This document shows positions 45,255-64,000 of a DNA stretch of 64,000 nt, one piece after another. The notes beneath the pieces were generated by a model. That model did not search any database, was not told where the DNA came from, and saw only the letters and a list, made by a program, of their open reading frames with translations. The stretch's first letter is position 1; every line of letters begins with the position of its first letter. The stretch comes from Thelephora terrestris (taxonomy: Eukaryota; Basidiomycota; Agaricomycetes; Thelephorales; Thelephoraceae), in NCBI GenBank assembly GCA_015956445.1, contig WIUZ02000002.1:62001-126000 (forward strand), written 5' to 3'. Made by a program: the position numbers and the translations under genes.

Positions 45255-46394
45255 TCACACAAGGAGGAAGGGATCTACATCACAAGCACACTTCTGAGTC
45301 AAAAAACAACAATGAGCAAAGTGAAAGGGGTTATGTATGCTCTGAGGTCAGAAGGAGTAATCCTTTGTTACCGGATCCTGCCAACAGTCTCAACATCCCA
45401 GTACATTGTGCTGCAACCCCTCATACATCTCTCACCTCACTTCCGTTAAACCCTCACTCACTAAGTTGAACCCATACTCACTGGGAGCAAGGGGTCAAAT
45501 ACCCAGTGGGTACATTCTGAACACATTGTGCCTGCTGTGCACATTTTAATTTTTTTCACAATGTTTCCATCAATGTGTTCACAATGTACCCAGCTCATTA
45601 CATAATAGTTTCTTTCACAATGTTGTCCACTATGTGTCCAGCATGTGGCTGAGCCACTCATTCAAACTTCTTTCACAAAGTATCCAGTGATGTGTCTAGA
45701 ATGTGTACAGCCATACACATAGTGATTTCTTTGAAAGTTCATGGCGAAATTGAACAATATTGAGATTACATTGTGATTACTTCAAAAAGAACCCCCTGGG
45801 GACATTATGGACACACCACTGGGTAATCTTTGAAAGAATTTTGAATGAGTGGCTCAGCCACATGCTGGACACATTGTGGACAACATTGTGAAAGAAACTA
45901 TTATGTAATGAGCTGGGTACATTGTGAACACATTGATGGGAATATTGTGAAAGAAATTAACATGTGTACAGCAGGCACATTGTGATCACAATCAAAATGT
46001 GCCTACTGGGCACATTGGACTCACATGGCCAGGCACATTTTCAATGTATTCAAATTTCCCCCACTGAGCACATTGTGATCACTTGTTGACCGTGATCACA
46101 ATGTGTTCAGCATGTACCCACCAGGTATTTGACCCCTTGTCCCCAGTGACTTCTCCTGCAGACTCAGAAGAGGAGCACGTCCATTGTTCATGATGGTTCT
46201 GTTGGGATCATCATATCCAGCCTGCTCCCAAAAGTGGGGGGGAGCCTGATGCTGAGTAAGGAAGTTGATGGCGACCTCATTATCATGGGCAATGTTGGTG
46301 GGGGTGTTGTACAAGTGGTCGGCAACATCGTAGGGAGTAGTGGCCTCATAAGGGGAGGCAGAGACGAAAGGAGTAGCGGCAGTGTTAAGAGACA
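45255..46394 (-). pseudogene. Decayed copy of the Cys/His-rich coiled-coil module gene
   Basis: The start at 46394 gives MSLNTAATPFVSASPYEATT and then DVADHLYNTPTNIAHDNEVA, INFLTQHQAPPHFWEQAGYD. This matches the gene at 55807 (HLYDSPANIAHDNQVAIDFL; APAEFWEQAGYEDP). On the far side of the inserted foldback element (45479-46148), the minus strand carries a match to that gene's C-terminus (YGF.LVS, EMYE, CWQDPVT and a final KCACDVDPFLLV). The middle of the gene is shorter than in the other copy. It looks inactive, being both interrupted and degenerate. A TATA-like word (tatatac) lies near 46494 on the minus-strand side upstream of the start. Confidence 0.65.
45479..46148. mobile_element. Foldback CACTA-like element F1, ACT target duplication
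   Basis: The 670-bp element begins CACTGGGAGCAAGGGGTCAA and ends with the near-perfect reverse complement. ACT lies directly on both sides (45476-45478, 46149-46151). The two arms are inverted copies of each other, built of words such as ACATTGTG and CACAATGT, meeting near a GAGTGGCTCAGCCAC-type centre. It has no coding capacity, so it is non-autonomous. The 5'-CACTG end and 3-bp duplication fit the CACTA/EnSpm superfamily. It is inserted in the decayed gene at 45255-46394. Confidence 0.85.
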
Positions 46395-47358
46395 TAATAG
46401 CAAAAGTTGTTTGTGAGAGGGGGAAGTTGTTGTAGATTTGTGGGAGTGGAAAAGAGGTGATGAGGGGAAAAGACCAAGAAGACCCACAGAATATATACGC
46501 CCAGAACAATGGGACACCTAAAGGGGGAGAAATAATAAATCATTATTCATTATTATGCCAAAAGGGATAAATGAACCTTCAACCCCAATCACGATCCCAT
46601 CAACTAGGAAAAATCCCCACCGATCATGGGAAATCCCCATTGATCTCCTATTGCTACCATGTGTCAGGCCAATGCGACCTCTACAGTTCAATAGCACTCT
46701 TGCTATCCAAACCTATCATAGCCAGGGGTCAAACACACAGTAATAACCCTGTTACAAACCCAGGGATATCGGAAGTCTCTTCACAGACTTAGAGTAGAAG
46801 AGAGGAGAAAGAAGGAGACAAGGTTCTTCAGATACTCTTGCTCTTAGCACACAGCAGTGGAGGTCACAGAGAGTCTGATGATAACAAATCTAGGGAAGTA
46901 CAGGCTAAACTACTCTAAGTATATATACTTCCTAGATTTGTGACGTGACAGTGACTAGTAACTACACTAATGATACAAACACAGACAAACATGGTCCATG
47001 CACAGCACTGCATGGTCTGTGCGTTACGTGGTGACTAATGCTACAAATTATCAGCTGATAAACAAAAGTGTGGTGGCCAATAGCAATTTGAGAGCATTAC
47101 AAAGCAGTTACAAAGCATGACGTATCATGGGAATGTTCGGAAATGAATGTGGGTTGGCTGAGTAATAGCCAATAGCAAAAGGGGAGCATATGACTAAAGA
47201 TAGGGGCATATGATGTCATGTGGGTCATGTGCAGTAAACAATAGAAAAGATGACTCAACTCCTGAGTCGTGGAAGGGGCATGGTTTTTGGTATATAACCA
47301 AAGGGGGTTGGATGACTAGGTCTCCCAACAAATCCTCTTTTGTTACACACAGCCAACA
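46395..47358. promoter_or_regulatory. Control region between two divergent module genes
   Basis: This region contains the gaaatccccat-type words (46600-46650) seen also near 53390-53450 and 55450-55610, two copies of a GGTCCATG/GGTCTGTGCG word (46990-47022), a long AT-containing inverted repeat (46884-46941) and TATA-like words on both sides (near 46494 and 47291). It lies between the minus-strand gene at 46394 and the plus-strand frame starting 47359. No other coding signal is seen. Confidence 0.5.
46884..46941. repeat. Inverted repeat with a TATA-containing loop
   Basis: ACAAATCTAGGGAAGTA (46884-46900) and its reverse complement, one base shorter (46926-46941), flank a 25-base loop that ends in TATATA. 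It could form a hairpin or be a paired protein-binding site in the module control region. Confidence 0.55.
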
Positions 47359-47577
47359 TGCCACATGCCTCTACTTGTATCCCCACCTGTCACTCTACCT
47401 CCAACTCTCCTGTTCAGGAGACCAATTATAAAATTGACCGTTTCACTCATGCCTGTAATGATCGGTCCCATCCCTATCCTACCTTGGGGAGTATCTTGGA
47501 TCGTTCCGCCACCGCCGACCCTACGGAAGGGTTTTCTGACTTAGGTGGGGGGACCTGCTTATGCATTCTGGTTTAGG
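47359..47577 (+). CDS. Short unknown frame downstream of a TATA box
   Basis: The frame starts MPHASTCIPTCHSTSNSPVQ and continues ETNYKIDRFTHACND with several Cys and His, to about 72 residues. A TATA-like word (tatataa, 47291-47297) sits about 65 bases upstream, the same arrangement as in the other modules. It may continue by splicing near 47543. No family is recognised. Confidence 0.3.
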
Positions 47578-47595
47578 AATCTAAGCTAACTCCTT

Positions 47596-47802
47596 TTAGG
47601 TTTTTGGGATTTCATCCAGGCTTCTTGAAGGGTGTCTCGGCGCAAGTTGGCGCGGATCGAGACTAATCCCTATACGGCCGAACTCTTGGGTCATGGGGTC
47701 GAGTTCGTCACTGAGGTGAACGAAACTTTCAACTCGGTTCTTGATGCCAGCGTTGTTCACACGAGCAACGTCGGTGTTATGTTGATGGACTGTCGGGAAC
47801 AT
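47596..47802 (-). CDS. Short unknown module gene sharing its 5' flank with another module
   Basis: This 68-residue frame starts MFPTVHQHNTDVARVNNAGI and has fungal-looking codons. Its 5' flank and first codons (aataccATGTTCC.GACA) are nearly identical to those of the frame starting at 58308, whose coding part is otherwise a different family. A TATA-like word (tataaaaag on the minus strand) lies about 20 bases upstream. It could be the first exon of a longer gene, or a remnant. Confidence 0.3.
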   Translation of the reverse strand: MFPTVHQHNTDVARVNNAGIKNRVESFVHLSDELDPMTQEFGRIGISLDPRQLAPRHPSRSLDEIPKT

Positions 47803-47974
47803 GGTATTTTTAAACTTTTTATAACACTCTTTCTTCGAACTCTTCTTACCACTTCTTATGTTTTGAATGCTTCACACTCCTTATCCTTCACACCAATCAT
47901 TCCAACACACAAACGCGCGTACCATTCCCAGCAAATCGTAACAACATGGCTATATACGGTGCTATCCAAGTCCA

Positions 47975-49711
47975 TCAAAAGTCAACTCGATCTACGGCAG
48001 GCCTCATGGTCATCAACGTTCCGTCCCGGAGATCGAAGAGCCGGCCCCTCCTCGCAAGGATCTCTCCGAACATGGCGTCACCATCTTCGGCGCTCAGCTG
48101 AACCTCTAGTTCAAGCCGATAGGGAGAGATACCTTCGAGCGGGCCGATCAGCCTCCCAGATGTCACCGAACTGCTGAACACCTGGTCCCACATCTCCATC
48201 ACCAGGTGAGTGCTCGGCAGCGCTGTCGACGTAGTCGAAGAGCGACCCTCCGTCTCCCTCATCGGACCCCTGGGTGGGATCCTGTCTTGCGAGCCGAAGC
48301 TGGTGTCGAAGCTGGATCTCCGACTCGACCTGTTGGTTGGGGCGGTTGACCCGGTATCGGAAGGATCTTCCCTCATCTCGACCAGACTGGTCACCATCTG
48401 ACTCAACTGGACGCGGATAAGGATTAGCCGAGGGAGCCATGCGATGAGCAACATGGCGTTGAGAGCGTTTGCAACGCTGCCCTGTTGTCACCGGACGTAC
48501 CTCAATGGCCCTCGGAACATCTTCGGCCCGGTCAACCTCCATGACCTCATCCTCGATCTTGACCAGCTGACTGATCGGCTGCAATGGGCAGCGCCGACAG
48601 TTCTCCTTGTCGGACTTGGCCAACGTAGAAGCCGGAGCCGGAGTCGGAACGGGAACCACGTTCTCGATTGGAGGCGTCGCGTAGAACGACGGGTTAGGCG
48701 ACGGGAGTACCACCTCGTCGGCGTACTCCAGCTCAAATGGAACGTCGGCAGTCCCCTGACCAATCAGCACAGGACCTTCCTTGCAGTTGCAGGTCTTATC
48801 CTGCAAGGACGCGACCTGCGCAGTCAACATGGCCACCAAGTCTTCGAGCTGTTCCGTCTAAAAGAAGTCTCTCAGTCATTGCATAAACCTGCAAAGGCTG
48901 AAAGAACCTTTTCATCCCTCCTGGCCAAGGCCCCCTTGATGTTGTTGTTCCTGACCTTCAGTCCAGCAACCAACTCTTGATGGTTGGCGACCATCGCCTC
49001 CAACGCCTCATTCGTCCCCTGCTGGAAGGCGGCCAGAGTCTCCTTCATCAGAAGACCCTCCGCTGACAGACGAAGGACGTCTGCCTTCGCCTCCTTCACC
49101 TCACGCTCCAATCGTTCCACCTAGGCCATTTGGTTAATCGAGAGTCATACTCGAATATCCAAACTGAAAACCTACTCGGCTTTCCCCCTCTCGAACGAGC
49201 GACCACAACAACGTGGTGGAAGCAGTGGCATGGTGGACGGCCCGAGGAACGGTTGCCCTGTGCTCCAACAGGTCCTGATCGTAGATTCCCCTCTGCAGGG
49301 TATACCAGAGCTCCTTTTTGATGGGATGCTCCAGCTCCCCGAACCTACCCCTCATCTGGAAGTTCACCTTCTCGGCGATTATCGTATGGACCCAGAGCTC
49401 ATCGTCCCAGGTCAACCCCATCAAATGTGGGATCGTTTCCCGGAGACGTTCGGCGTCCACCTCTGTGACGACCTCCAAGATCTAGAAGCCGTTAGTTTGA
49501 TATCAACGCCGAAAGAACGTAACCTCTACCTAGAGGAAGGCGTTAGTGCAACACACGAAGCTCTAGGCCTCCCCCATACCTGGTCATCCGTGGTATAGGG
49601 AGTCCCCGCAGCAGTGGCGTAGGTCTTGCGAGCCGCGGCACGGCGGTCGATGTGAGAGATGGTGGAGATGCCGTTGGCGACTTTGTAGGTGTGGTTGTTT
49701 GGGAAGGACAT
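47975..49711 (-). pseudogene. Module family 1, copy A: coiled-coil protein gene
   Basis: The start at 49711 gives MSFPNNHTYKVANGISTISH. After introns follow EVVTEVDAERLRETIPHLMG, LTWDDELWVHTIIAEKV, GELEHPIKKELWYTLQRGIY and PRAVHHATASTTLLWSLVRE. A coiled coil follows (VERLEREVKEAKADVLRLSA), then SLQDKTCNCKEGPVL, a Pro-rich linker (PVPTPAPAST), ENCRRCPLQPISQ and an acidic end. A minus-strand TATA-like word and short leader precede the start. The whole region is about 85-90% identical by eye to copy B at 58411-60942. No known domain is found. The far C-terminal part looks decayed, so the copy may be inactive. Confidence 0.6.
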
Positions 49712-51086
49712 GTTGGTAAGATGATGGGGAAGTTGCTGGTGTTGCTGATCAAGGATGGCTCCAAGAAGATGTCCTTCTTATAGCCTAGATCGGTGATCCT
49801 TCACGTGACCTACCTCGATGAACCTCATTGGTCCAGGTCACATCAACTTCCACCCCTGTACCATCATCGTTGGCTTACTACATCAAGCTGACACCTCGGC
49901 CCGCGGGACAGCCTTGGAAGTACTTCGTTCCGGAACGCCTAGAACGCGCGCGCACTAAAAATAGGTCTCAAGACCCTGATGACCCCTTTATGACATCACG
50001 AACTCCTTTTTACGACCCCTCATGACTTTACGATTACGATCAACCCTGGACCCTGATCACACACGTGGACAGTCACATCACAGTCTCCTAACCGGAGGAA
50101 GGAATCGCCGTTATTCGGAAGGAGTGCCTTAGACTCCTTTTGTTTAGCCCAGCGAATGTGGAGTAGCCGTTAGCGTGAAACACCGGCGAATCTGTAATCC
50201 CTCATGTCCCATGAGTCTAGGCCTGCGCTCCTCATGTTTGGATGTACGTTGAGGTTGCCACTAGTCCGTGATGCTGTTACTGCCTACAGACAACAAGGGA
50301 TGCTGCATGGGCTCTATCTTTGGCCTCTCCAAAGGAAGCATCCAAGAAGATTCTCACCTAGCCCTTGGGTGTGATCCCCAGGTACGAACTTTCATGACCC
50401 CATGACCCTCTTTCTTTTAGGACTAGCGTTATCTTTACTCCTATGTTTCATGCGGACATTTCTTATCTTTTATGCAATCCTTCGCACGCTAGTAAGGCCC
50501 TTTGTCCTTTATTTCTCCCACGCGTCATACTTGTTCGCTTCCCTTACTTAGCGTTCTCACACTCCTTATCTCCCTTTGTTCGGACTTGATAAGGGTATAT
50601 TAGGGTATTGACGTCATGGCCACTCCTTTAGTATAAGTAGCAACTGTGGCTGTATCGTAGTACCTTAGTTTTGTTACCTCAGGAAATCCTCTGCCCTTCT
50701 CAGCCCAGTTGCAGTTAAGGACAAGTCAGAGTTTCTTGTTTGATCCAAGACACCCCCCCATCTGCTCTCCCTCCCGCTCTGCACGTCAACTGCGCCTCGT
50801 AACTATAGAACCCCAGCATTCATATTAGAACACCTCGAGCGTCCAGTCGATCACCTGGTGGAGTCATCAATCCTGTTGTAGGGATAAACCCTTGTCTGTT
50901 AAACCGAACGAAGTACGGTTTAGGTTGGGTTTCTCTTTAGGATTTCGACCTGACTTGTAGTGACCTCGGACAACCTACCGGAAGAATAGAGACGTGATCC
51001 TTCTCTCACAAGCTAGTTGGACTAGTGAGTACTCTGCGGAGTCGGCTCAGTGCACTGGTAGTTGTTGGGGTAGAGTGGCCCTGACA
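49712..51086. promoter_or_regulatory. Control region between divergent genes, copy A
   Basis: About 1.37 kb without a gene, closely similar to 60943-62210. It holds a minus-strand TATA-like word near 49779 (tatagcc on +) serving the gene at 49711, and a plus-strand one, agtataagta, at about 50630-50640 serving the gene at 51087. Blocks conserved between the copies include TCACGTGACCTACCTCGA, GAATCGCCGTTA, CCACTAGTCCGTGATGCTGT and CCTCTGCCCTTCTC. The conservation ends just before the plus-strand start codon. Confidence 0.55.
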
Positions 51087-52093
51087 TGGACGAGATAGCT
51101 CATGTAAATGAGCGAGTTGATGGTTGCTGTGAAGAGATCGAGAAGTTGGAGAAGGACTACCTCGGGTTCCAGGAATGAACATTGAAGACCGAGGATGAAC
51201 AAGAACAGCAGGGAATGGCCAATGATCGGTTGAAGGTAAGAAATGTGGGGTCAGGGGTAATTGACCTTTCTAATCCAACATTTCTTTAGGGAGAGATGAT
51301 CACGTTGAAGGACTTGATCCGGGGTCTGGTTGCCCAGATGAACTTGATCCCGAGTTTGGTTGATCAAGTCAGTCGTTTGGAAGATGACAGGGTAAGGGGT
51401 AGGGGTAGAAGATATCTCATCAGTGAATTTCGCGATCACTTTTTACTTTTTGCACTTATTTGCGCTTATTCCTGTGCTAATTTTTCGGGCGCTAAAATAC
51501 CCTGGCTTAAATAAGCGTCACTTATTCACTTATTGGCACTTATTTGCACTTATTTTCACTTATTTGATGAAATCCAGGTTGACTGATGCTGTCATCATTC
51601 TGACCCTTTCCCTTTTAGGTTCGTCTTACCCGTTGTGTCTCGGAGTTGACCGGGGAGGTCCGTGATCTTCAGAGGAGGCGTAACAAGCCAGAGGTTCGAG
51701 TTGAGGAAGAGGAGTTGATGATTCCGGAGCGGGCTGAGTCTCCACCTGCTCATTTTGGTGGTCCAGTATGAGAACCGGTTGATCCCGGTTGATGATGAGG
51801 TCATCAGGATTTGTGAGGAAGAGTTTTACAGGAACACCGGAGTTGTCTGCAGGGATACTCCGTGTCCTGAATCTTAATACCTTGGGTCAGTCTTGGAGTT
51901 CGATCCGTACACTGAGTTTGTTCCAGATTCGGAACCAAACTCTGATACAGAACTTCCAGATTACGACAACCTGTTGGATGTGGATCTGAACGAGATTTGG
52001 CAGAGGAACTGGGAGGATCTCCCGTTAGTGGAGAGGGCTTTGGAGTTGGTTCAGAGGATGAACCGGGATCTTCAGGATCTCGCTCCTGAGTAG
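51087..52093 (+). pseudogene. Acidic coiled-coil module gene, degenerate
   Basis: The start gives MDEIAHVNERVDGCCEEIEK and LEKDYLGFQE. Further exons give GEMITLKDLIRGLVAQMNLI, PSLVDQVSRLEDDR, then RLTRCVSELTGEVRDLQRRR and an acidic end (LEFDPYTEFVPDSEPNSDTE; WEDLPLVERALELVQRMN) with the stop at 52093. Two introns (about 51237-51290 and 51392-51617) have regular ends. The frame is interrupted, so the copy is probably inactive. It encodes helical, heptad-like segments of unknown function. Foldback element F2 begins 12 bases after the stop. Confidence 0.5.
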
Positions 52094-52104
52094 ATAGTTC
52101 CTCT

Positions 52105-52917
52105 CACTGGGGGCAAGGGGTCAAACACCTGGTGGGTACATGCTGAACACATTGTGATCACAGTCAACAAGTGATCACAATGTGCCCAGTGGGGGAAATT
52201 TGAATGCATTCAAAATGTGCCTGGCCATGTGAATCCAATGTGCCCAGTGGGCACATTTTGATTGCGATCACAATGCACCCATCAATTTTATCTCAATGGA
52301 CACATCAATGTGATCTCAATGTTCCCATCAAGGTGTTCAAAATGTACCCAGCTCATTACATAATGGTTTCTTTCACAATGTTGTCCACAATGTATCCGGC
52401 ATGTGGCTGAGCCACTCATTCAAACTTATTTTAAAGATTATCCAGTGATGTGTCCATAATGTCCCCAGGGGGTTCTTTTTGAAGTGATCACAATGGAATC
52501 TCAATATTGTTCAATTTTACCATGAACTCTCAAAGAAATCACCATGTATATGGATGTACACATTCTAGACACACCACTGAATACTTTGTGAAAGAAGTTT
52601 GAATGAGTGGCTCAGCCACATGCTGGACACATTGTGGACAACATTGTGAAAGAAACCATTATGTAATGAGCTGGGTACATTTTGAACACCTTGATGGGAA
52701 CATTGAGATCACATTGATGTGTCCATTGAGATCAAATTGATGGGTGCATTGTGATTGCAATCAAAATGTGCCCACTGGGCACATTGGATTCACATGGCCA
52801 GGCACATTTTGAATGCATTCAAATTTCCCCCACTGGGCACATTGTGATCACTTGTTGACCGTGATCACAATGTGTTCAGCATGCACCCACCAGGTATTTG
52901 ACCCCTTGCCCCCAGTG
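52105..52917. mobile_element. Foldback CACTA-like element F2, TCT target duplication
   Basis: The 813-bp element runs from CACTGGGGGCAAGGGGTCAA to its reverse complement, with TCT on both sides (52102-52104, 52918-52920). It belongs to the same interior family as F1 and F3 (ACATTGTGATCACAATGTG words; central GAGTGGCTCAGCCAC). Its arms are inverted over nearly the whole length. It is non-coding. Confidence 0.88.
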
Positions 52918-53024
52918 TCTTGTAACTCGTTGACTTCGGAATCGATCTTCTTTCTTGTTTTCTTGTGCATGATCCATGAGTTGTAAAGCATAATGATTTT
53001 CATAAGTCCAATCCAAGGGTCAGA

Positions 53025-53255
53025 TTAATAAGCCAGTTGACTTCTGCGAGTGGTCAACACACGACACTTATTAATACATCCCTTGTTGTCAGTAGCCTGA
53101 ATATCTACTAGTCGTCCAGGGGCAATGGAGGGCCAGGTAGGGGGGATCTTCATATGAAGGTCCGCCGGTACATGTTCACGTATTATACCTTGGGTCTTCT
53201 GGGGTATCTTGACTAGTAGCACGTTCCACGTATTGGACTTTGAGTCGTTAAACAT
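53025..53255 (-). pseudogene. Unknown coding remnant
   Basis: A 76-residue frame (MFNDSKSNTWNVLLVKIPQK; KIPPTWPSIAPGRLVDIQAT) with a plausible globular composition but no recognised family. It sits between F2 and a module promoter and has no obvious promoter of its own. It is likely the end of a larger decayed gene. Confidence 0.3.
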
Positions 53256-53379
53256 AGGGCATATTGCATAATAAACAGTTTACCGCCGTGTTTAGGGCAG
53301 GGCACCAACTGACTTAGTGGTAATGAGGCGTTAAATAAAGGGAATAAAAGGGGGTAAACAGCGAAATCATCACACCATG

Positions 53380-53735
53380 AAACTTGAGAAATCCCCATCT
53401 ATCTTCTATTGCCGCCATGAAACCTGAGAAATCCCCATTGACTCATCACCTATTGTTCCTCTGTTTGCATTTACCATCAGTTGTCCTAAGTTCCACTTTT
53501 CTGACTCATCTAGCCTACCCTAAGCTACACACAGACCATGTTGACACTTGTTTGGCTTGATGTATGATTACTAGGCATGTAGAGGATTGGGTATATAAGG
53601 AAGAGCATTTTCTCCTTTCTTTTCCCCATTCTCAATCTCTTCTGTACTCTCCTACCAACTGCTCAACAAACAAAGTAAGCTGCTACCAACTGCTCGATAA
53701 ACAAAGTAAGCTGAGGAATTCTCCTCACACCTTAC
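53380..53735 (+). promoter_or_regulatory. Module family 2 promoter joined to family 1 coding DNA
   Basis: This stretch matches the reverse complement of 55190-55620: two gaaatccccat repeats, CACACAGACCATGTTGAC, a TATA box (gtatataagg, 53591-53600), then the leader ctcctttcttttccccattc and GTAAGCTGAGGAATTCTCCT. In the other copy this leads into the minus-strand gene at 55144. Here, at about 53736, it runs directly into the tail of family 1 copy C. The leader segment ACCAACTGCTCRAYAAACAAAG is also duplicated in tandem at 53655-53706. Confidence 0.6.
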
Positions 53736-54691
53736 CATGTCAGAATCCTCCAAGATGGAAACAGGAGCAGGAGTAGGGAGTGGAACTTGGTTCCCCACTG
53801 GAGGCATAGCGTAAGACGGTGGGTTGGGAGAAGGAGTAGCATCTTCATTGGCATACTCCAATTTGAATGGCTCCTCTGGCAATCCTTGACCAACCAATCT
53901 GGGTGAACCCTGGTTGGAATGACAGATCTTGTCCTGGAGGGACTCGACCAGCACAGTCAAGACATCAACCCTATCCTCGAGTTGATCACCCTAGCGAACA
54001 TTAGTTTTTCTCTCAAAAAGAGCGTACTTTGCATCACTCACCCAGTTGCTTTCCTCCGCCAAGCCCCATTCGGCCTGTTTCAAGATCTTATCACGTTGAT
54101 CAAAGTCTTTCGCCACAATCCTATCCCGCTCGTGCAAGGCCTCTCACTGGGGGCAGGGGCACCTGGAATCAGTGATTACATCTTGATTACATGGTGAGTT
54201 CATGTGCACTTTCAATAATTGTAATTGCCGATTCCAGGTTGATTACATTTCAAATGTTACCTTGACATGCAATTCAACTGTTGCCACCAACTCCATTTGA
54301 AAATTTCTCAAGATGCTCCCAAGCAATGTTTCCTGAATTTGCCCAGTGGGTACATCATGGAAACATCTCATGTTTTTGAGCACATTTAGATTACATCTCG
54401 GACAATTGAAGAACACACTGATTACATTGCAGTATCATTTTTGCCAACAGGTCAAAAGCATCCCAGAAAAATATGTTGAGAACATTTCAAATGGAATTGG
54501 TGTCAGGGTTGTAGGCCTGCTTACTGTTTGTGGGGCGCTAGAGGATTAGCGGAGGGGTGAGGGGTGTCGGGTCTAGTTTTGAAGGGGGTCCCGGGTGTGG
54601 AAACGAGGGGAGGAGGGATATCGAGAGAGAGAGGTGACTCTGTCTGGTAAGGGTGCACGGGTGAGTGGTAGTCCTGGCAGAACTGGTTGAG

Positions 54692-55144
54692 TTACTGCAC
54701 GAAAGGTTCGAAGTCTTGGTCGCTAAGGCGTTCGAAGTTGACGAGATATTCTATAACCGAATAAGGTAATTCAGTTGGGATCTCCCACCAAAGAACGATG
54801 ATAGCGGGAGAATGAGTATGGATATTAGTGGTGAGATGAACACGTGGGGAGGGAAAGTAAAAGGCGGGACTGATACTGAAGTAGACAGTCGCAAGGACGC
54901 TCTCAGTAAGGTCTGAATTCGAAAGGAATTGATGATCGGCTCCTAAGAGAAAAGGGGGAGTAGTGACTCCGGCGTCGAGAGCTGCAAAGGGGCGGTAGTA
55001 AGGGAAATGGGTGAGTAAGCCGGTGGTTCGGTTTACTTGAAGACTTCTGATGAGTTTATACTCCCAGATAGATCTCCTAGCGTCAGGGACGACTGGTCGC
55101 TGGATTGGACTTGTAGAGGGGAAGGGATTAGGGGCACTGAACAT
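54692..55144 (-). CDS. Module family 2, minus-strand gene, unknown function
   Basis: A 150-residue intact frame: MFSAPNPFPSTSPIQRPVVP, ARRSIWEYKLIRSLQVNRTT, GLLTHFPYYRPFAALDAGVT, VLATVYFSISPAFYFPSP and a C-terminus ending LVNFERLSDQDFEPFVQ. It has alternating hydrophobic strands and looks like a small folded protein. Upstream, a TATA box (tatataag on the minus strand, 55288-55296), a pyrimidine-rich leader and a likely 5' intron (donor near 55212, acceptor near 55164) support transcription. No family is recognised. Confidence 0.5.
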   Translation of the reverse strand: MFSAPNPFPSTSPIQRPVVPDARRSIWEYKLIRSLQVNRTTGLLTHFPYYRPFAALDAGVTTPPFLLGADHQFLSNSDLTESVLATVYFSISPAFYFPSPRVHLTTNIHTHSPAIIVLWWEIPTELPYSVIEYLVNFERLSDQDFEPFVQ

Positions 55145-55449
55145 ACACTGGCAGGAGGATTCCTGCTGAAATGAGTCAGAAAGGGTAAGACGTGAGGAGA
55201 ATTCCTCAGCTTACTTGTATTCAGGTTGTGGGTAGGAGAGTACAGAAGAGATTGAGAATGGGGAAAAGAAAGGAGCGAACGCTCTTCCTTATATACCCAG
55301 CCCTCTACAGGAGTCATAATTCTACAAGGAACCAAACGTGTGTAAACATGGTCTGTGCGTACTTTAGGGTAGGTTGAATGAGTCAGGGAAAGGGGACTTA
55401 GGACAATGGACGGTAATGACTAATACTAAAACAAATAGGAGGAACGACT

Positions 55450-55613
55450 AGGGGGATTTCTTCTGATCGACGGGGATTTCTCTGGGTTTCGGAAGTAGTA
55501 GAAGTGTGGCGGGGATTTCCCTTGATCGATGGGGATTTCCCTGGGTTTCGGGAGTAGTAGAAGTGTGGAGGGGAAATCTCCTGATCGATGGGGATTTCTC
55601 AGGTTTTGATGGG
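55450..55613. repeat. Three tandem 60-bp repeats in the module promoter
   Basis: The unit starts GGGGATTTCYTCTGATCGA and contains a second GGGGATTTC and the word GTAGTAGAAGTGTGG. Copies begin at about 55452, 55511 and 55571 (the last partial). Related single or double copies occur at 53390-53450 and 46600-46650. They lie between two divergent start sites and look like iterated protein-binding sites. Confidence 0.75.
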
Positions 55614-55806
55614 ATCGCGATTTGGGGTTGAGGGTTTGTTTATCCTAATTGGGACTTTAATGGAAAATGATTATTGTTTTCCCCTTTTGGGATTCTGTTG
55701 AGTCAGGATGTATTTAAGTCAGGGGGATTAATGATCGTTTCCTCCATCGTCTCTTTTCCACTCCCACCAAACCAACCACCACTCTCCTAACCAACCTTTT
55801 GATATC

Positions 55807-56716
55807 ATGTCTTCTTCCATCGCCAACAACGCCGTACTCAACGCCGCTGCCACCCCCTTCGACTTCACTCTGTCCTTCGAGACGGATGCTCCCTACAACA
55901 TGGAACAACACCTATATGACTCTCCTGCCAACATCGCCCATGACAACCAGGTCGCCATTGACTTTCTTACTGCTCACAATGCTCCCGCTGAGTTCTGGGA
56001 ACAGGCTGGGTACGAAGACCCCAGGCTTCCCATGCCTCAGATGCAGGCTCAACACCCTGCGGCCGCTCGCTTGTTGGACGTCATGGAGAGGGATAGGGAG
56101 GATAGGATCGCGAAGTTGGAGAAGCGCGTGGACCTCATGTACGTCATCATGAACAGTTTGAATGATGACTTCTCTCACTTTGCTTTGGAACATTGGGGAC
56201 CTTTCCAGGCATCTCTCTTCCGATATTTCGGACACCAATGCCACGGGACTTATTGCACCGACCCCCCTTGCAAGTCCCCAGTCCTCCCTTCGCCACCGCC
56301 AGGATCAGGGCGTTCCTCTCCCTCCATCCCCTCCCTGGAGTCCTGCCCCAGTTCGTCAGATGGTGGAGAGGTCCCAGAAGAAGAAGACCCGCAAGAGTCC
56401 GATGACTCGTTCTGGTCAACGTTGTCGTCCCTCCGACAAGTCACGGCAGGTGAGGATGAAGTTGAAGGTGGAAGTGGCGGGTCTCCAAGACCGCTATGGG
56501 TTCTCCTTAGTGAGCGGGGCCTTGTTGGACGTGCGACGAGAGATGTATGAGAGTCTCTCTCATGATGTGTTGGGGTGTAGGGAATGTTGGCAGGATCCGG
56601 TGACGCGAGAGTGGTCTTATTGCCCTGAGAGTGTTTATAACCCTCACCACTTCGCTCACCGTTGCCCCCTTCCTCAGAAGTGTTCATGCGATGTTGACCT
56701 GTTTGTTCTTGTTTGA
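55807..56716 (+). CDS. Module family 2, Cys/His-rich coiled-coil protein gene
   Basis: The start gives MSSSIANNAVLNAAATPFDF, then HLYDSPANIAHDNQVAIDFL and APAEFWEQAGYEDP. A helical stretch follows (ARLLDVMERDREDRIAKLEK; MYVIMNSLNDDF), then FGHQCHGTYCTDPPC and a Ser/Pro/Glu-rich linker. A short intron near 56450-56481 is likely, because similarity to the copy at 45.3 kb continues in another frame: GLQDRYGFSLVSGALLDVRR, then GCRECWQDPVTREWSYCPES and HHFAHRCPLPQKCSCDV. The end thus holds a cluster of Cys and His residues that could bind zinc. It stops at 56716. No known family. Confidence 0.55.
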
Positions 56717-56960
56717 GTCGGTAGTTCCTTTCTCTCATTTTTGTACTATTACTACTGCGAATAAGACCAATGTCTTGAATTACTTGTGTGATCTTGGTTA
56801 CTATGTCACGTGTTCGTGACAATTGGTGGACATTGGCTCGATTACATGTCAAGGTAACATTTGAAATGTAATCAACCTGGAATCAGCAATCACAATCATT
56901 GAAAAGTGCACATGAACTCACCATGTAATCAAGATGTAATCACCGATTCCAGGTGCCCCT

Positions 56961-57625
56961 CACTGGGGGCATGGGGGTACTTACCCAGTGGGTACATGGT
57001 GATTTCATTGTGAGTTTTGAAACCATTCGCCCAGTTGTTACCCACCAGGTACTTTTTGGGTACTTTTTGAAAGATACCCATCAATTTGCCCACATTTTAC
57101 CCACTGGGTACATGGTGGGTACTTTTACAATTTACTTTCCAATGTGCCCATCACAAACTTGAGCCACTCGTTGGGAGTTCTTTCATAAAGTACCCACTGA
57201 TCTGATCACAATGTACTCAACCAGATACTCAATGGGTTCTTTGAGAGTTCATGGTAAAACTGAGCCACACTGTTAGTTCTTTGTGAGTTCTTTGAAAAAA
57301 ACCTACTGGGTACATTTTGATCAGATCGGTGGGTATTTTGTGAAAGAACTCTCAACAAGTGGCTCAAGTTTGTGATGGGCACATTGGAAAGTAAATTGTG
57401 AAAGAACCCAGGGGTTTCGCTCAAAAAATACCCACTGGGTTCCTGAGTGGGTACTTTTACAAAGTACCCACCATGTACCCAGTGGGTAAAATGTGGGCAA
57501 ATTGATGGGTATCTTTCAAAAAGTACCCAAAAAGTACCTGGTGGGTAACAACTGGGCGAATGGTTTCAAAACCCACAATGAACTCACAATGTACCCACTG
57601 GGTAAGTACCCCCTTGTCCCCAGTG
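56961..57625. mobile_element. Foldback CACTA-like element F4, CCT target duplication
   Basis: The 665-bp element begins CACTGGGGGCATGGGGGTAC and ends with the reverse complement, with CCT on both sides (56958-56960, 57626-57628). Arms are built of TACCCACTGGGTA and GGGTACTTT words, unrelated to F1-F3. It is inserted 10 bases inside the right terminus of F5. It is non-coding. Confidence 0.88.
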
Positions 57626-58410
57626 CCTGCCCCCAGTGCCTAGGAGTTCACAGGACTTAGCCACTTCCTGAGCCATGTACTCCCTCATGTTCTCCTTGCA
57701 CTCCTCCAATAGAGTCGCAACCCGAAGAGCATCAACCTTCGCCTCTTTCACCTCACGCTCTAAACATTCAACCTAATGGAACCTTGGTTAAAGAGAGTCA
57801 TACTCTAAACACCAAGGCAACCCACCTTGCTGTCCCCTTCTCGAACTAGAGACCAGAGCAGAGTGGTGGATGTGGTGGCATGGTGGATCGCCCAAGGAAT
57901 GGTAGCTCCGTGCTTCAACCAATGCTGATCGTAGACCCCTCACTGCAAGGTGTACCACAGCTCCTTCTTGATGGGATGCTCCAACTCTCCAAAACAACCC
58001 CTCATTTGATGAATCGTGATTACCTTCTCGGCAATTAGGGTTTGGAACCAGAGCTTGTCGTCCCAGGTCAAGGCTGGAGGATGCTGGATTGTCTCCATGA
58101 GACGTCCAGCATCCACCTTCTTAATGGCTGTGAGGAGCTAGAAGACATTAGATCTGTCTTTTGACAAACTGTCAAAAGATGACCTACATTGTCATCCGAA
58201 ATGTAGTGACTGCCCTCATCGCAAATGTACTCCTTGGCTCTGCGAGCATGACAATCAATGCAGGACATAGTGGTGATCCCCTGGGAGACTTGGTAGTGTC
58301 AGGAACATGGTATTTTTTAACACTCCATCATTCCAAAAAAAAACACAACATGCATACATTCATGGCAATCGGAACCACAAGGCTATACTACACAGCTTAT
58401 AAATGTCCTA

Positions 58411-60942
58411 TCAAAAGTCGATTGTATCTTCAGCAGGCACCCAACGCATCAGCAGTCCATCCCGGTCAAAGAACTGGCCTCTCCTAGCAAGGATCTCACC
58501 GAACATGGCGTCCCCATCCTCCACGCTCAACTGAACATCTAGTTCAAGTCAATATGAAGAGACTCCTTCATAGGGACCCACCAGCCACCCAGATGTCACT
58601 GAACTTTGGAACACTTGGTTCCACATCTCCATCACCGGGTGACTGCTCAGCAGCGCTGTCGACATAGTCGAAGAGAGACCCTCCATCTCCCTCATCGGAG
58701 GCCTGGGCGGGATCCTGTCACTGGGGGCAAGGGGTCAAATACCCAGTGGGTACATGCTGAATACATTGTGATCACAGTCAACAAGTGATCACAATGTGCC
58801 CAGTGGGGAAAATTTGAATACATTCAAAATGTGCCTGGCCATGTGAATCCAATGTACCCATCAATGTGATCTCAATGTGCCCAGTGGGGACATTTTGATT
58901 GCAATCACAATGTACCCATCAATGTGTTCACAATGTGCCCAGCTCATTACATAATGGTTTCTTTCACAATGTTGTCCACAATGTGTCCAGCATGTGGCTG
59001 AGCCACTCATTCAAACTTCTTTCACAAAGTATCCAGTGATGTGTCCATACTGTCCCCAGGGAGTTCTTTTTGAAGTAATCACAATGTAATCACAATATTG
59101 ATCAATTTCACCATGTATTCTCAAAGAAATCACTATGTATATGGCTGTACACATTCTAGACACATCACTGGATACTTTGTGAAAGAAGTTTGAATGAGTG
59201 GCTCAGCCACATGCTGGACACATTGTGGACAACATTGTGAAAGAAACTATTATGTAATGAGCTGGGTACATTGAGAACACATTGATGGGAACATTGTGAA
59301 AGAAATTAAAATGTGCACAGCAGGCACATTGAGTTCACATTGATGTGTACATTGTGATTGCAATCAAAATGTCCCCACTGGGCACATTGAGATCACATTG
59401 ATGGGTACATTGGATTCACATGGCCAGGCACATTTTGAATGTATTCAAATTTTCCCCACTGGGCACATTGTGATCACTTGTTGACTGTGATCACAATGTA
59501 TTCAGCATGTACCCACTGGGTATTTGACCCCTTGCCCCCAGTGTGTATTGCGAGTCGAGTGAGGTGCCTACGCTGGACCTCCGACTTGACCTGGCGGTGG
59601 AGACGGTTGACCTGGTATCAGAACCATTGTCTCTCACCTCAACCAGACTGGTCACCATCCAACTCAACTGGACACGGGTAAGGGTAAGACAAGGGTGCCA
59701 TGCAATGCGTGATACGGCGTTGGGAGCATTTGAATGCTGCCCCTTAGTCACCAGACGTACCTCAGCAACCCTCGGAGTATTTTCGGCCCTGTCCACGACC
59801 ATCTCCTCAATCGGCACCAACTGACTGATCAGCTGCATCGGGCAGCGCTCACAGTTCTCCTTGTCGGAATCGGCCAGAGTGGAAGCCGGAGCCGGAGTAG
59901 GAATGGGAGCCTCGTTCTCTACTGGAGGTGTGGTGTAGGATGATGGATTAGGCAATTGGAGTACCACCTCATCGGCGTACTCCAACTCGAAGGGAACATC
60001 GACAGGACCCTCCTTGCAGTTACAGGTCTTATCCTGAAGGGATTCGACCTGCGCGGTCAACACGGACACTATATCCTCGAGTTCATCGACCTAAGAGAAC
60101 GTTAGTCCCTCTCACAAAAGAGAGTGTACTTCGCATCTCTCACCCAAGTGCTCTCTATGTTGATCTTCTTTGAGCGCCTATCCAGGCGATCGTCCCTCCT
60201 ATCCAAGGCATCCCTCAGGTTGTCATCCCATATGCCCAAACCTGCGACCAGGTCCTGATGGTTAGTCACCATCGCCTCCAACGCCTCGTTCGTCTTCCTC
60301 TGGAACTCGGCCATGGTCTCCTTCATCAAGAGACCCTCGGTGGACAAACAAAGGACATCTGCCTTCACCTCCTCCACCTCACGCTCCAACCGTTCAACCT
60401 AGGCAGTTTGGTTAACGAGAGTCATACTCGTATACCCAAATGGAAAATCTACCCGGCTTTCCCCCTCTCGAACAAGCGACCACAACAGCGTGGTGGAAGT
60501 GGTGGCATGGCGGACCGCCCGAGGAACAGTTGCCCCATGCTCCAACAGGTCCTGATCGTAGATCCCTCGCACGAGGGTGTACCAGAGCTCCTTCTTGATA
60601 GGATGCTCCAACTCCCCGAACCTACCCCTCATTTGATGGATCGTCTTCTCAGTGATCATGGACCGGACCCAGAGCTCATCGTCCCAGGTCAACCCCATCA
60701 AATGTGGGATCGACTCCCTGAGACGTTCGGCGTCCACCTGCCGAACGACCTTCAAGATCTAGGGAAAGAGTTAGAACTAACACAAAAGAAGTTCAAACTC
60801 TCCCCCATACCTCTTCATCAGTAGTGTATGGAACCCCCGCCTCACAGGCATAGGTCTTGCAAGCGGCGGCACGGTGGTCGATACAGGAGATGGTGGAGAT
60901 CCCATTGGCGACTTTGTAGGTGTGGTTGTTGGGGAAAGACAT
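58411..60942 (-). pseudogene. Module family 1, copy B, split by foldback element F3
   Basis: The start at 60942 gives MSFPNNHTYKVANGISTISC, and then the same order as copy A: VDAERLRESIPHLMGLTWDD, GELEHPIKKELWYTLVRGIY, RAVRHATTSTTLLWSLVREG, a coiled coil, SLQDKTCNCKEGPVDVPFEL, IPTPAPASTLADSDKENCER and RVQLSWMVTSLVEVRDNGSD. F3 is inserted at 58719-59543. Beyond it the C-terminal part continues to a stop at 58411-58413. The reading frame before F3 appears better preserved than in copy A. Function unknown. Confidence 0.62.
58719..59543. mobile_element. Foldback CACTA-like element F3, TGT target duplication
   Basis: The 825-bp element begins CACTGGGGGCAAGGGGTCAA, with TGT on both sides (58716-58718, 59544-59546). 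It has the same interior family as F1 and F2. The flanks read ...GATCCTGT and TGTATTGCGAG...; copy A reads GATCCTGTCTTGCGAG at about 48279-48294 without the element, which confirms the insertion and its 3-bp duplication. Confidence 0.92.
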
Positions 60943-62210
60943 GATGGTAAGATGATGGGGAAGTTGCTGGTGTTGCTGATAAAGGATGGCTCCAAGAAGA
61001 CATCCTTCTTATAGCCTAGATCGGTGATCCTTCACGTGACCTACCTCGACGCACCTCATTGGTCCGGGTCATATCAACTTCCGCCACTGTACCATCATCG
61101 TCGGCTTACTATATCAAGCTGACACCTCGGCCCACAGGATGGCCTTGGAAGAACTTTGTTCCGGAACGCCTAGAACATGTGCACACCAAAAATAGGTCTC
61201 ATGACCTTGACAACCCCCTTTACGACCCTGATGACTCATTTATGACATCACGATAACGACCAACCCTGGACCCTGATCACACACGTGGACAGTCACATCA
61301 CAGCCTTCCTAACAGAAGGAAGGAATCGCCGTTAATCGATAGGAGTGCCTTTAGGCTCCTTTTGGTTAGCCAAGTGAATGTGGAAGTAGCCGTTAGCGTG
61401 AAACACTGGCGAAGCATGTAATCCCTCATGTCCCATGGGTCTAGGCCTACCTCCCCATGTTCGGACGTACGTTGAGGTTGCCACTAGTCCGTGATGCTGT
61501 CACTGCCTACCGACAACAAGGGATATGTAGAGTTCCAATCACAAATCCACTCGACACGAAGTAAAGCGATGTTGCTCACCTGACCCTTGGGTGTGATCAC
61601 AGGTACAAATTTTTGTGATCATATCCCCCTATTTCTTTTAAGATTAGTGTTATCTTTTATCCCTATGTTCCATGTAGACCATTGTTCTCTTATGCATTCC
61701 TTCACACACTAGTAAGGCCCTGTGTCCTTTACCTTCCCACACGTCATACTTGCTTGCTTCCCTTACTCAGCGTTCACACACTCCTTATCTCCCTTTGTTC
61801 ATTCCTGTTAAGGGTAAATTAGTTTCTCATGCTGTCAGGCCACTCCTTAATGGTTTAAATAGCCAGTCTTTCAGTTGAGTAATTCCCTAGCTTTGAAACC
61901 ACAGGAATTCCTCTGCCCTTCTCTGCCTCAGTGTAGGTAAGGTCAAGTCAGAGATTCTTTTGAAACACCCTCAGCATGATCATATTTCCTCCCACTCTAG
62001 GCATTCAAAGACCCTTCAGACCTCTCTCCTCATCGGAGTCTGCAAATACTTGAAGTAACTCTTAGTCATTGGGTTGCGGCACTCATCGGCAAAGACCTTT
62101 CAACTTGACCAACGTGATAAAGGACAACCTACCAGGAGCTGCTAGTCGGACTAGCTAGGTTCAGGGAACCTCAGTGGACACTGGGAGCTAAAGGGTAGAG
62201 TGGCCCTGAC
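60943..62210. promoter_or_regulatory. Control region between divergent genes, copy B
   Basis: About 1.27 kb without a gene, similar along its length to 49712-51086, including TCACGTGACCTACCTCGA, the CCACTAGTCCGTGATGCTGT block and the CCTCTGCCCTTCTC block near 61910. The similarity ends at GTGGCCCTGAC (62200-62210), just before the expected start of the plus-strand gene, where F6 is inserted. Confidence 0.55.
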
Positions 62211-62881
62211 ACAGTGCCCCAGTATGTTCCCATTAGGTAATCCATGGGTACATTCCCAAAGAATGTAACCTCAATGTCACCGATCAGCACATTTACAATG
62301 TTGCTGGCCAGTAAAATTCAAAATGCACCCAAACAGTGTTTTTGCAGTGTTCTGGGTTGGTAAATCCAGAATGTACTGGTGGCGTCGACCACAATGTACT
62401 GAGTCCGGCAAACATCAGGAACACTGCAGGAAAACTGGGAACATTTTAAATGAACTTGTGATGTCCCCAGTTTTTCCAGTTTCCTTGCAGTGTTCTTACA
62501 GTGTCCCTGATGTTTGCTGAACTCAGTACATTGCGCTCGATGGCACCAGTACATTCTGGATGTACCACCCCGGAACACTGCAAATACACTGTTTGGGTGA
62601 ATTTTGAATTTTCCTGACCAGGAAAATTGTAAATGTGCCAATCGTCAATGTTGAGGTTACATTCTTTGGGAATGTACCCATGGATTACCTAATGGGAATA
62701 TCACTGGAACATTGTGAATGTACTGACCATCTTCTGTCCCGGAACACTGCAAGGAAATTGGTCTGGAAAATTCAGAATGTGTTTGCGATGTACTGGGTCG
62801 GTTTTTGCCAGGTACATCGTCCATTTCCTTGCAATGAACTTGCAATTTTCTGGACTGGAACACCACCCCTTGCCCCCAGTG
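62211..62881. mobile_element. Foldback CACTA-like element F6, left end truncated
   Basis: The right end is the CACTGGGGGCAAGGGGTGGT terminus in reverse. The interior is an inverted repeat (about 62222-62706) of GGAACACTGCA, GAATGTACC and CCATGGGTACATTCCC words. About 170 bp of the left arm expected from the right arm are missing, so no target duplication can be read. It is non-coding and is a fourth interior family. Confidence 0.7.
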
Positions 62882-62892
62882 ATTCCGGACAG

Positions 62893-63124
62893 GATGGCGT
62901 CGCCAGCTTTGGAGGGATCATACTATACTCCTGTGCGCACTGAGGATGGTGAGGAATTCATTCGTGAGACATCCGAGGAGATCGCTGTCAATCCGACTAG
63001 CAGTTCTTCGGAGTTGGAGTACAAGGAAGGGAACGAGGTAGCCATCTCCACCCCGCCTCCATTGGTCTCTCCGGTGTGTGGTCAACGCTCCATCTGTGCT
63101 CGTCGATGGGCTCCTTGTAATGGT
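62893..63124 (+). pseudogene. 5' part of an unknown acidic module gene, cut by F7
   Basis: The frame starts MASPALEGSYYTPVRTEDGE and continues EFIRETSEEIAVNPTSSSSE and PPPLVSPVCGQRSICARRWA until element F7 begins at 63125. It takes the position, relative to the control region, that the gene at 51087 has in copy A, but the protein differs. No family is recognised. Confidence 0.4.
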
Positions 63125-64000
63125 CACCGGGGGCAAGGGTTGGTTTACTGAGTCAGTAAACTGTGGGTAAATCACAAGTAAATGGAAAAAGAACCTAGTG
63201 AAATACTTGCCTGGCAAGCGCAAAGCAAATTCACAATTTACTGAGCCAATTTACCTGCAATTTACTGAGTTTAGTATGCGCTCAGTATGTTTGCAGTTCA
63301 CTGGGTCATGTGACCACAGTTTTCCCATTAGGTAAACCTTGGAAATTTTCACAATTTACTGAACAAATTTACCAGCAATTTACTGAGTTTAATTACAGTT
63401 TACATGTGTTTTCTGGTTTACTTTACGTGTATTTGCAATTTACTGAAAGAAAACTTGCAGTTTACTCATAAAGACACGTCCTGGTAAAATTTCAAGTATT
63501 TTTCAAATTAGCCAATCAGGTATGTTGTCAGTAAACCAATTAGATTTTTTTCTGATTTACTGAGTCCAGTAAACCATGATCAAATCATCACGTGTTTTCC
63601 CAGTTGACCTGATGTGTATTTGCAATTTACCAAAGAAAACTTGTAGTTTACTAAAAATGACACGTCCAGGTAAATTTTCGGTTATTTTTCAAATTTACCA
63701 ATCAGGGATGTTGTCAATAAACCAGTTTACTGAGTCCAGTAAATTGCAATCAAACCACTCAGCAAATTGAAAACATACTGATTGGGCAAGTGGCTCAGTG
63801 AATTGCTAGTAAATTTGTTCAGTAAATTGTGAAAATTTCCAAGGTTTACCTAATGGGAAAACTGTGGTCACATGACCCAGTAAATTGCAGGTAAATTGGC
63901 TCAATAAATTGTGAATTTGCTTTGCGCTTGCCAGGCAAGTATTTCACTAGGTTCTTTTTCCATTTACTTGCAATTTACTCACAGTTTACTGACTCAGTAA
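63125..64000. mobile_element. Foldback CACTA-like element F7, runs off the right edge
   Basis: It begins CACCGGGGGCAAGGGTTGGT, one base different from the other termini, and consists of an inverted repeat of GTAAATTG, CAATTTACTGAG and AGTAAACTG words. The right arm repeats the left in reverse (e.g. CTTGCCTGGCAAGCGCAAAG at 63207-63226 and its complement near 63917-63936) and is cut off by the window end about 15-20 bases short of the terminus. A fifth interior family, much more AT-rich than the others. Confidence 0.8.

What the first reader, a model, noticed from the sequence alone, without database searches (positions are those of the whole stretch)
45479..64000. One set of transposon ends, five unrelated foldback interiors
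Seven elements share the terminus CACTGGGGGCAAGGGG with few changes. Their interiors fall into five groups with no visible similarity: ACATTGTG words (F1-F3), TACCCACTGGGTA words (F4), TGATTACAT words (F5), GGAACACTGC/GAATGTACC words (F6) and GTAAATTG words (F7). Each is a near full-length palindrome made of many copies of its own short word. CACTA elements are known to carry subterminal repeats bound by their own protein, but several different word sets behind the same ends in one island is unusual. It suggests one transposase recognises only about 16 bp, or that the interiors are generated by replication slippage.
Basis: partly seen in the sequence, partly recalled or inferred. Interest (0 to 1): 0.8.

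Follow-up and report, generated by a model that had tools for sequence, protein, structure and literature searches.

The report
Related foldback transposons with swapped words
A genome that looks fungal carries hundreds of short, nearly palindromic jumping genes with the same 15-letter ends; most of the families examined prove to be relatives in which the short word that fills the element has been exchanged for another version at many places at once, a natural series for asking how a DNA-binding protein and its sites could change together.

Summary
The elements are real: the terminus occurs 444 + 433 times in the 40.6-Mb genome against 1 + 2 for the reversed pattern, and 32 of 36 facing end pairs in the DNA held have an exact 3-bp duplication. 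They are non-coding foldback MITEs with EnSpm/CACTA-like ends, eight families by the bases behind the ends. 'Five unrelated interiors' does not hold: arms of 26 of 28 pairs of family representatives align better than all 60 shuffles, and interiors share a word step of about 11-12 bp and a unit of about 58 bp (weak in two). In several families the words look like versions of one ~10-bp site, changed alike at many places; for the F5 word this is unproven. Indels of 23, 35 or 58 bp are mirrored in both arms in 4 of 13 family-A copies, and one nested insertion shows in both arms, so one arm can be copied onto the other. Best reading: a transposase cuts the ends, a second protein binds the words. 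Neither was found: 73 Transposase_21 matches exist, none shown inside such ends. New variant of a known kind.

The parts
45479..46148 (.). F1, family A element (670 bp), TSD ACT; asymmetric arms
52105..52917 (.). F2, family A element (813 bp), TSD TCT; arms 96% identical over 358 bp; two 35-bp deletions mirrored in both arms relative to a 953-bp copy
54145..57635 (.). F5, family E element (501-bp type) split by an insertion of about 2.3 kb and by F4; terminus CACTGGGGGCAGGGGC; flanks tct/cct
54501..56820 (.). insertion in F5 with TGTCA...TGACA ends and a 5-bp direct repeat ATTGG, read by eye (approximate borders); holds a 271-aa open frame without a Pfam match; looks like a non-autonomous LTR-type element
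56961..57625 (.). F4, family C element (665 bp), TSD CCT, inserted in the right end of F5
58719..59543 (.). F3, family A element (825 bp), TSD TGT; one mirrored 35-bp indel and one 58-bp indel in one arm only
62210..62881 (.). F6, family F fragment: matches positions 165-871 of a complete 871-bp copy; left end missing
63125..64000 (.). F7, family G element, first 876 of 896 bp; the rest lies beyond the window (to C12:126020)

Best explanation
One lineage of non-autonomous EnSpm/CACTA-like foldback elements has split into about eight families in this genome. Shown here: common 15-bp ends, 3-bp target duplications, no long open frames, arms that align between most families read, a common repeat architecture (word step about 11-12 bp, unit about 58 bp), family-specific versions of the word, and signs that one arm was copied onto the other in some copies. 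Inferred: the ends are cut by an EnSpm-type (Transposase_21) transposase supplied by another element; the word array is a dense row of sites for a second, TNPA-like DNA-binding protein; units are gained and lost by slippage or unequal exchange and spread to the other arm by template switching or conversion in the hairpin; the word changes throughout an element because the sites must keep matching a changing binding protein, with unit turnover as the means.
For: Terminus 444/433 vs 1/2. TSD exact in 32 of 36, offset control 2 of 36. Longest ATG frame 129 aa, median 57, in 35 elements. Lag 11 z 2.4-17.3 and best of lags 57-60 z 3.1-62.6 in 13 of 13 elements tested. 26 of 28 pairs of 8 representatives above all 60 shuffles, 28 of 28 above the reversed-sequence control; long alignments from the outer end. 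Same word substitution at several places: D to A position 8 T>C 6 of 8 (left) and 6 of 10 (right) against 0.10-0.12 outside words; D to C T>C 4 of 4 in each arm; G to F A>T 4 of 4 and 4 of 5. Five mirrored indel pairs in 4 of 13 family-A copies. Nested A insertion seen in both arms of an F element, 634-bp alignment at 97.95%. 73 Transposase_21 matches in the genome. Mixed nesting: C in E (window), A in F, E within the span of an A element. CACTA precedent: conserved ends, subterminal repeats diverging within one species (PMC2613891, passages including the abstract).
Against: No transposase or word-binding protein was shown between such ends. C-E and E-F2 do not exceed the shuffles, and the E word does not map significantly on A. 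Three pairs (C-E, C-F2, E-F) score higher with one arm reverse-complemented, so part of the similarity is word content, not colinearity. Identity inside words is about that outside them (e.g. F-G 0.67/0.64 vs 0.62/0.66; D-F2 0.57/0.56 vs 0.62/0.63), so words are not faster-changing overall; some checked substitutions were not significant (F2 to D left arm, G to F2 T>G left 0 of 2). The substitutions were chosen after seeing them, and left and right arms are not independent. Periodicity is weak in D (lag 11, z 2.4) and F (lag 57, z 3.1), and two of six control stretches show lag 12 at z 5.2 and 4.6. Arm homogenisation by tree exceeds permutation clearly in A only: own partner nearest in A 15 of 28 (permuted maximum 9), C 4 of 10 (8), F 4 of 4 with two copies (4), B 1 of 8 (4), E 0 of 16 (7).
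Confidence: 0.55

Rival explanations
1. Each family has its own autonomous partner and its own transposase; the 15-bp end is merely inherited and conserved in all of them.
For: 73 Transposase_21 matches and 132 Plavaka matches (123 of 261 candidates scored) show several transposase copies. Families have modal lengths, e.g. 30 of 34 family-C pairs under 1.1 kb are 723-726 bp (counted by eye; my notebook had said 29), so each seems to have amplified from its own master.
Against: By eye, no + and - pair up to 15 kb apart in the printed lists encloses a place; the lists are capped at 100 rows for A, B, E and G, and ends with more mismatches are not listed. Families sit in one another in mixed order, so their activity overlapped.
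Confidence: 0.3
2. The words have no bound protein: the interiors are neutral satellite-like arrays whose word changes by slippage and conversion alone (molecular drive), and the elements are carried only by their ends.
For: Recurring 23/35/58-bp indels, mirrored indels and a copied arm show turnover; words are not more diverged than the rest of the arm.
Against: Word step and unit length stay similar in families whose words differ, and stretches between words stay alignable, which unconstrained drive would not be expected to preserve.
Confidence: 0.25
3. The palindrome itself is the functional part, for instance as a source of double-stranded RNA or as a hairpin in replication; the words are a by-product.
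For: Long arms of high identity, up to 451 bp at 1.00 after rounding.
Against: Does not explain the 11-12-bp step or family-wide words; F1 and L021:1331 persist with unequal arms.
Confidence: 0.1
4. One reading: unrelated interiors arose independently behind the same ends.
For: Top words are nearly absent from other families, e.g. AGTGTTC 10 and 13 copies in two F elements and 0 in the six other representatives; C-E and E-F2 are not above shuffles.
Against: Alignment of arms between most representatives.
Confidence: 0.05

Closest known systems
EnSpm/CACTA elements of plants (soybean Tgmt*/Tgm, PMC2613891, passages including abstract)
   Same: 3-bp target duplication, conserved short terminal repeat, repeated subterminal motif that differs between families of one genome; that paper expects more such diversification.
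   Different: Ends are CACTG, not CACTA; the whole element is a foldback of word units; about eight families; no coding copy found.
Fungal EnSpm and Plavaka (PMC12730594, passages)
   Same: Fungal EnSpm: CAC..GTG ends and 3-bp duplications, as here.
   Different: PlavakaA ends TGT..ACA and PlavakaB ends CATCA..TGATG are not these ends.
Galileo foldback elements of Drosophila (PMC3573991 and PMC4168063, passages)
   Same: Long inverted repeats with inner tandem repeats, ends more conserved than the rest, several subfamilies per genome, changing TIR length.
   Different: P superfamily, 7-bp duplications; repeat numbers of the two TIRs are reported as independent in one subfamily, while here several length changes are mirrored.
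Drosophila FB elements (recalled, not read)
   Same: Inverted repeats made of nested short tandem units.
   Different: Other superfamily and other target duplication length (recalled).

Membership tests
EnSpm/CACTA superfamily | 3-bp target site duplication without fixed target | tested here: met
   32 of 36 adjacent facing pairs exact, 18 different triplets; offset control 2 of 36
EnSpm/CACTA superfamily | terminal inverted repeat CAC..GTG (CACTA in plants) | tested here: met
   CACTGGGGRCARGGG; fits CAC..GTG of fungal EnSpm but not the plant CACTA pentamer
EnSpm/CACTA superfamily | subterminal repeated motif | tested here: met
EnSpm/CACTA superfamily | Transposase_21-coding element with the same ends | tested here: inconclusive
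MITE | short, non-coding, many copies of fixed length | tested here: met
   longest ATG frame 129 aa in 35 elements; common lengths read by eye from printed lists: 725 (C), 840 (B), 953 (A), 501 (E)
Plavaka (A and B) | TGT..ACA or CATCA..TGATG termini | tested here: not met
   ends are CACTG..CAGTG; definition
PIF/Harbinger | 3-bp duplication restricted to TTA/TAA-like targets (recalled) | tested here: not met
   targets vary: TCT, TGT, AGA, TCA, ACT and others
Galileo/FB foldback families (P or Mutator superfamily) | 7-bp (Galileo) or longer (FB, recalled) target duplication | tested here: not met
   3-bp duplications; it works like a foldback element but is not a member

The most novel reading that the evidence does not exclude
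The families are a record of repeated co-evolution between a word-binding protein (of the element or of the host) and an array of dozens of sites: each time the protein's taste changed, the whole array was rewritten, first by unit turnover inside one arm and then by copying that arm onto the other through the hairpin, while the cleavage ends stayed fixed. The foldback shape would thus be a device for rewriting all sites of an element quickly and in both halves alike.
Probability: 0.25. Interest if true: 0.75.

Novelty: new variant of a known kind. Interest (0 to 1): 0.55.

Why it matters
How a transposon can change dozens of binding sites together without losing mobility is a question that the soybean CACTA work raises (PMC2613891, passages). 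Here one genome holds about eight families with fixed ends, one architecture and different words, plus copies caught with a length change in one arm only or in both. That makes the question testable with family-by-family binding and excision assays.

Tried and rejected
Plavaka as the source: its published ends do not fit. Of 30 Plavaka loci of 3.5-4 kb, 24 have no such terminus and in the other 6 none is placed so as to enclose the Plavaka domain, but these loci reach only 1.5 kb beyond the domain; five longer ones were looked at without finding their ends. Long copies as autonomous elements: C2:570188, C3:404248, C12:126140 and C3:1069546 (3.1-4.7 kb) look by eye like MITEs with a nested insertion and have no Transposase_21 or Plavaka match; C1:136681-140192 is two elements; C2:1210684-1219905 holds a reverse-transcriptase frame. 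C1:255398 beside a Transposase_21 match looked like an autonomous element, but an end at C1:256237 makes it most likely an 840-bp MITE (not read). C3:985719-996621 is an F element with a nested A element. Closeness of MITEs to Transposase_21 matches was looked at by eye only; Plavaka matches seemed similarly close, so it was not used. The indel-size test on 9 distinct sizes was not significant. Literature: the ten searches listed no paper that I recognised as describing these elements or their terminus; only open-licence papers are held and I read passages of seven, so this is no proof of absence. Of these, PMC9674265, PMC1636069 and PMC10051438 are not used in the argument.
Full report
What is there. 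The window lies in a 40.6-Mb, 60-contig genome. I take it to be a basidiomycete fungus from its Plavaka matches (132; 123 of 261 candidates scored) and Transposase_21 matches (73); the species was not determined. The terminus CACTGGGGGCAAGGGG occurs 444 + 433 times with at most one mismatch, against 1 + 2 for the reversed pattern. From 63 fetched loci and the window I took 39 elements whose ends face each other with at most one mismatch in the 3-bp flank. That pairing favours matching flanks, so I recounted without it: of 36 adjacent facing pairs 250-1150 bp apart, 32 have exact 3-bp duplications, 3 have one mismatch and 1 does not match; 3-mers taken farther out match in 2 of 36. The 35 elements of at most 1.1 kb were used for the comparisons; the 4 longer ones were left out there.

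Families. By the bases behind the shared 15 bp CACTGGGGRCARGGG, the 35 elements are A 14 (F1-F3), B 4, C 5 (F4), E 8 (F5 type), F 2 (F6 type) and two others, which I call D (L023:4907) and G (F7). Genome-wide counts of family termini (forward/reverse, at most 1 mismatch): A 157/157, B 88/86, C 46/45, E 168/169; G 75/72 at up to 2 mismatches; the F pattern 46/47, which includes G-type ends; the D pattern 25/30, of which 5 rows are exact D and 45 of the 55 a further family H, CACTGGGGGCAAGGGCCCAA, whose interior was not read. Reversed controls were 0 in each of these seven searches.

Common architecture. Four-mer autocorrelation of 13 interiors (16-bp ends removed; nine representatives and F1-F4) against 100 dinucleotide shuffles gave lag-11 z of 2.4 (D) to 17.3 (C) and a best z at lags 57-60 of 3.1 (F) to 62.6 (A), with other peaks near 23, 35, 46-47 and 69-70 in several. 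In six control stretches of the window lag 11 reached at most 2.1, and lags 57-60 at most 2.3 where listed among the ten highest; two of them had lag 12 at 5.2 and 4.6. In a family-A copy the words follow each other 12, 11 and 17 bp apart within a 58-bp repeat.

The interiors are related. Local alignment of one arm for each of 8 representatives (F twice), ends excluded, beat all 60 shuffles in 26 of 28 pairs, not in C-E and E-F2, and the reversed-sequence control in 28 of 28. The highest z values were B-C, F-F2, A-B, A-C, B-D, F-G and F2-G (44 to 11.6), and alignments of F-G, D-F2, D-G, A-D and B-C run over most of the arm from its outer end, A-E over about 215 bp. In C-E, C-F2 and E-F the score is higher with one arm reverse-complemented, so there the evidence is word content rather than colinearity. 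Top words are nevertheless nearly private to families.

The words as versions of one site. In alignments the D word AAAGTACTGA mostly stands opposite AAAGTACCCA-like strings in C and AATGTACCCA-like strings in A; the G word AATTTACTG opposite AATTTTCC- or AGTGTTCTG-like strings in F. The repeated substitutions exceed the background outside words: D to A position 8 T>C 6 of 8 (left) and 6 of 10 (right) against 0.10 and 0.12; D to C T>C 4 of 4 in each arm; G to F A>T 4 of 4 and 4 of 5. Against this: the substitutions were chosen after inspection, the two arms are not independent, E to A and part of the F2 to D and G to F2 checks were not significant, and overall identity within words is close to that outside them.

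How they change. Against a 953-bp copy, 9 of 13 other A copies have indels of 5 bp or more. Five pairs of equal indels (35, 35, 35, 58, 23 bp) lie at mirrored places of both arms, within 11 bp, in 4 copies (F2 twice, F3, L012, L015:4971); one-sided indels occur in F1, F3, L015:3828, L021, L024 and L026. Mean identity of the two arms of one copy against arms of other copies: A 0.977 vs 0.924 (6 copies), C 0.964 vs 0.906 (2), F 0.978 vs 0.826 (2), B 0.951 vs 0.941 (3), E 0.928 vs 0.947 (8). In arm trees the own partner is the nearest arm in A 15 of 28 (permuted maximum 9), C 4 of 10 (8), F 4 of 4 (4), B 1 of 8 (4), E 0 of 16 (7), so the effect is clear in A only. At C3:985719-996621 an A element inserted in an F element shows its end in both arms at the mirrored place, flanked by TCA on one side and its complement on the other, a 634-bp alignment at 97.95%. 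This fits copying of one arm onto the other; an assembly error is not excluded.

Mechanism. Shown are the ends, the duplications, the architecture, the relatedness and signs of arm copying. That an EnSpm-type transposase cuts the ends and a second protein binds the words is inferred from CACTA biology (PMC2613891 passages; PMC12730594 passages). The long copies read look like MITEs with nested insertions, and by eye no listed end pair encloses a Transposase_21 match, with lists capped at 100 rows for A, B, E and G. Families sit in one another in mixed order (C in E in the window; A in F; E within the span of an A element), so their activity overlapped, which favours shared machinery without proving it.

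Verdict. It is a new variant of a known kind, EnSpm/CACTA-like ends joined to a foldback structure of phased site units.

Noticed in passing
G000:C3:422661-427015: An H-type end (C3:426996-427015, minus) lies about 0.7 kb from a Transposase_21 match that is split into two pieces; the best lead to a coding copy, not read.
   Followed up: no
G000:C1:3984732-3994726: Two Transposase_21 matches in opposite orientation (948-aa open frames) lie symmetrically about the centre of a 725-bp family-C MITE, which suggests a palindrome of about 10 kb around it.
   Followed up: no
L016:5836-8647 (C12:130335-133146): Another palindromic element with CAGTAG..CTACTG ends and words such as TTGCAATGC, flanked by what looks by eye like GTCTTTT on both sides (7-8 bp), i.e. 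probably a different superfamily.
   Followed up: partly
window 54501-56820; L016:1641-4796: Insertions of about 2.3 kb in two MITEs carry similar open frames (271 and 275 aa, alike at their start); the window one has no Pfam match.
   Followed up: partly
L020 (C2:1210000-1219900): A 1735-aa open frame with reverse transcriptase, RNase H and endonuclease matches between two family-B ends.
   Followed up: partly
window 25160-26278 (minus): Open frame with BAR-like and PH domains, an ordinary host gene candidate.
   Followed up: no
G000, genome-wide: Several family-G pairs are near 1366 bp although F7 is 896 bp; the difference is about 8 units of 58 bp. Family H (often about 497-527 bp in the list) is not in the window.
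   Followed up: no
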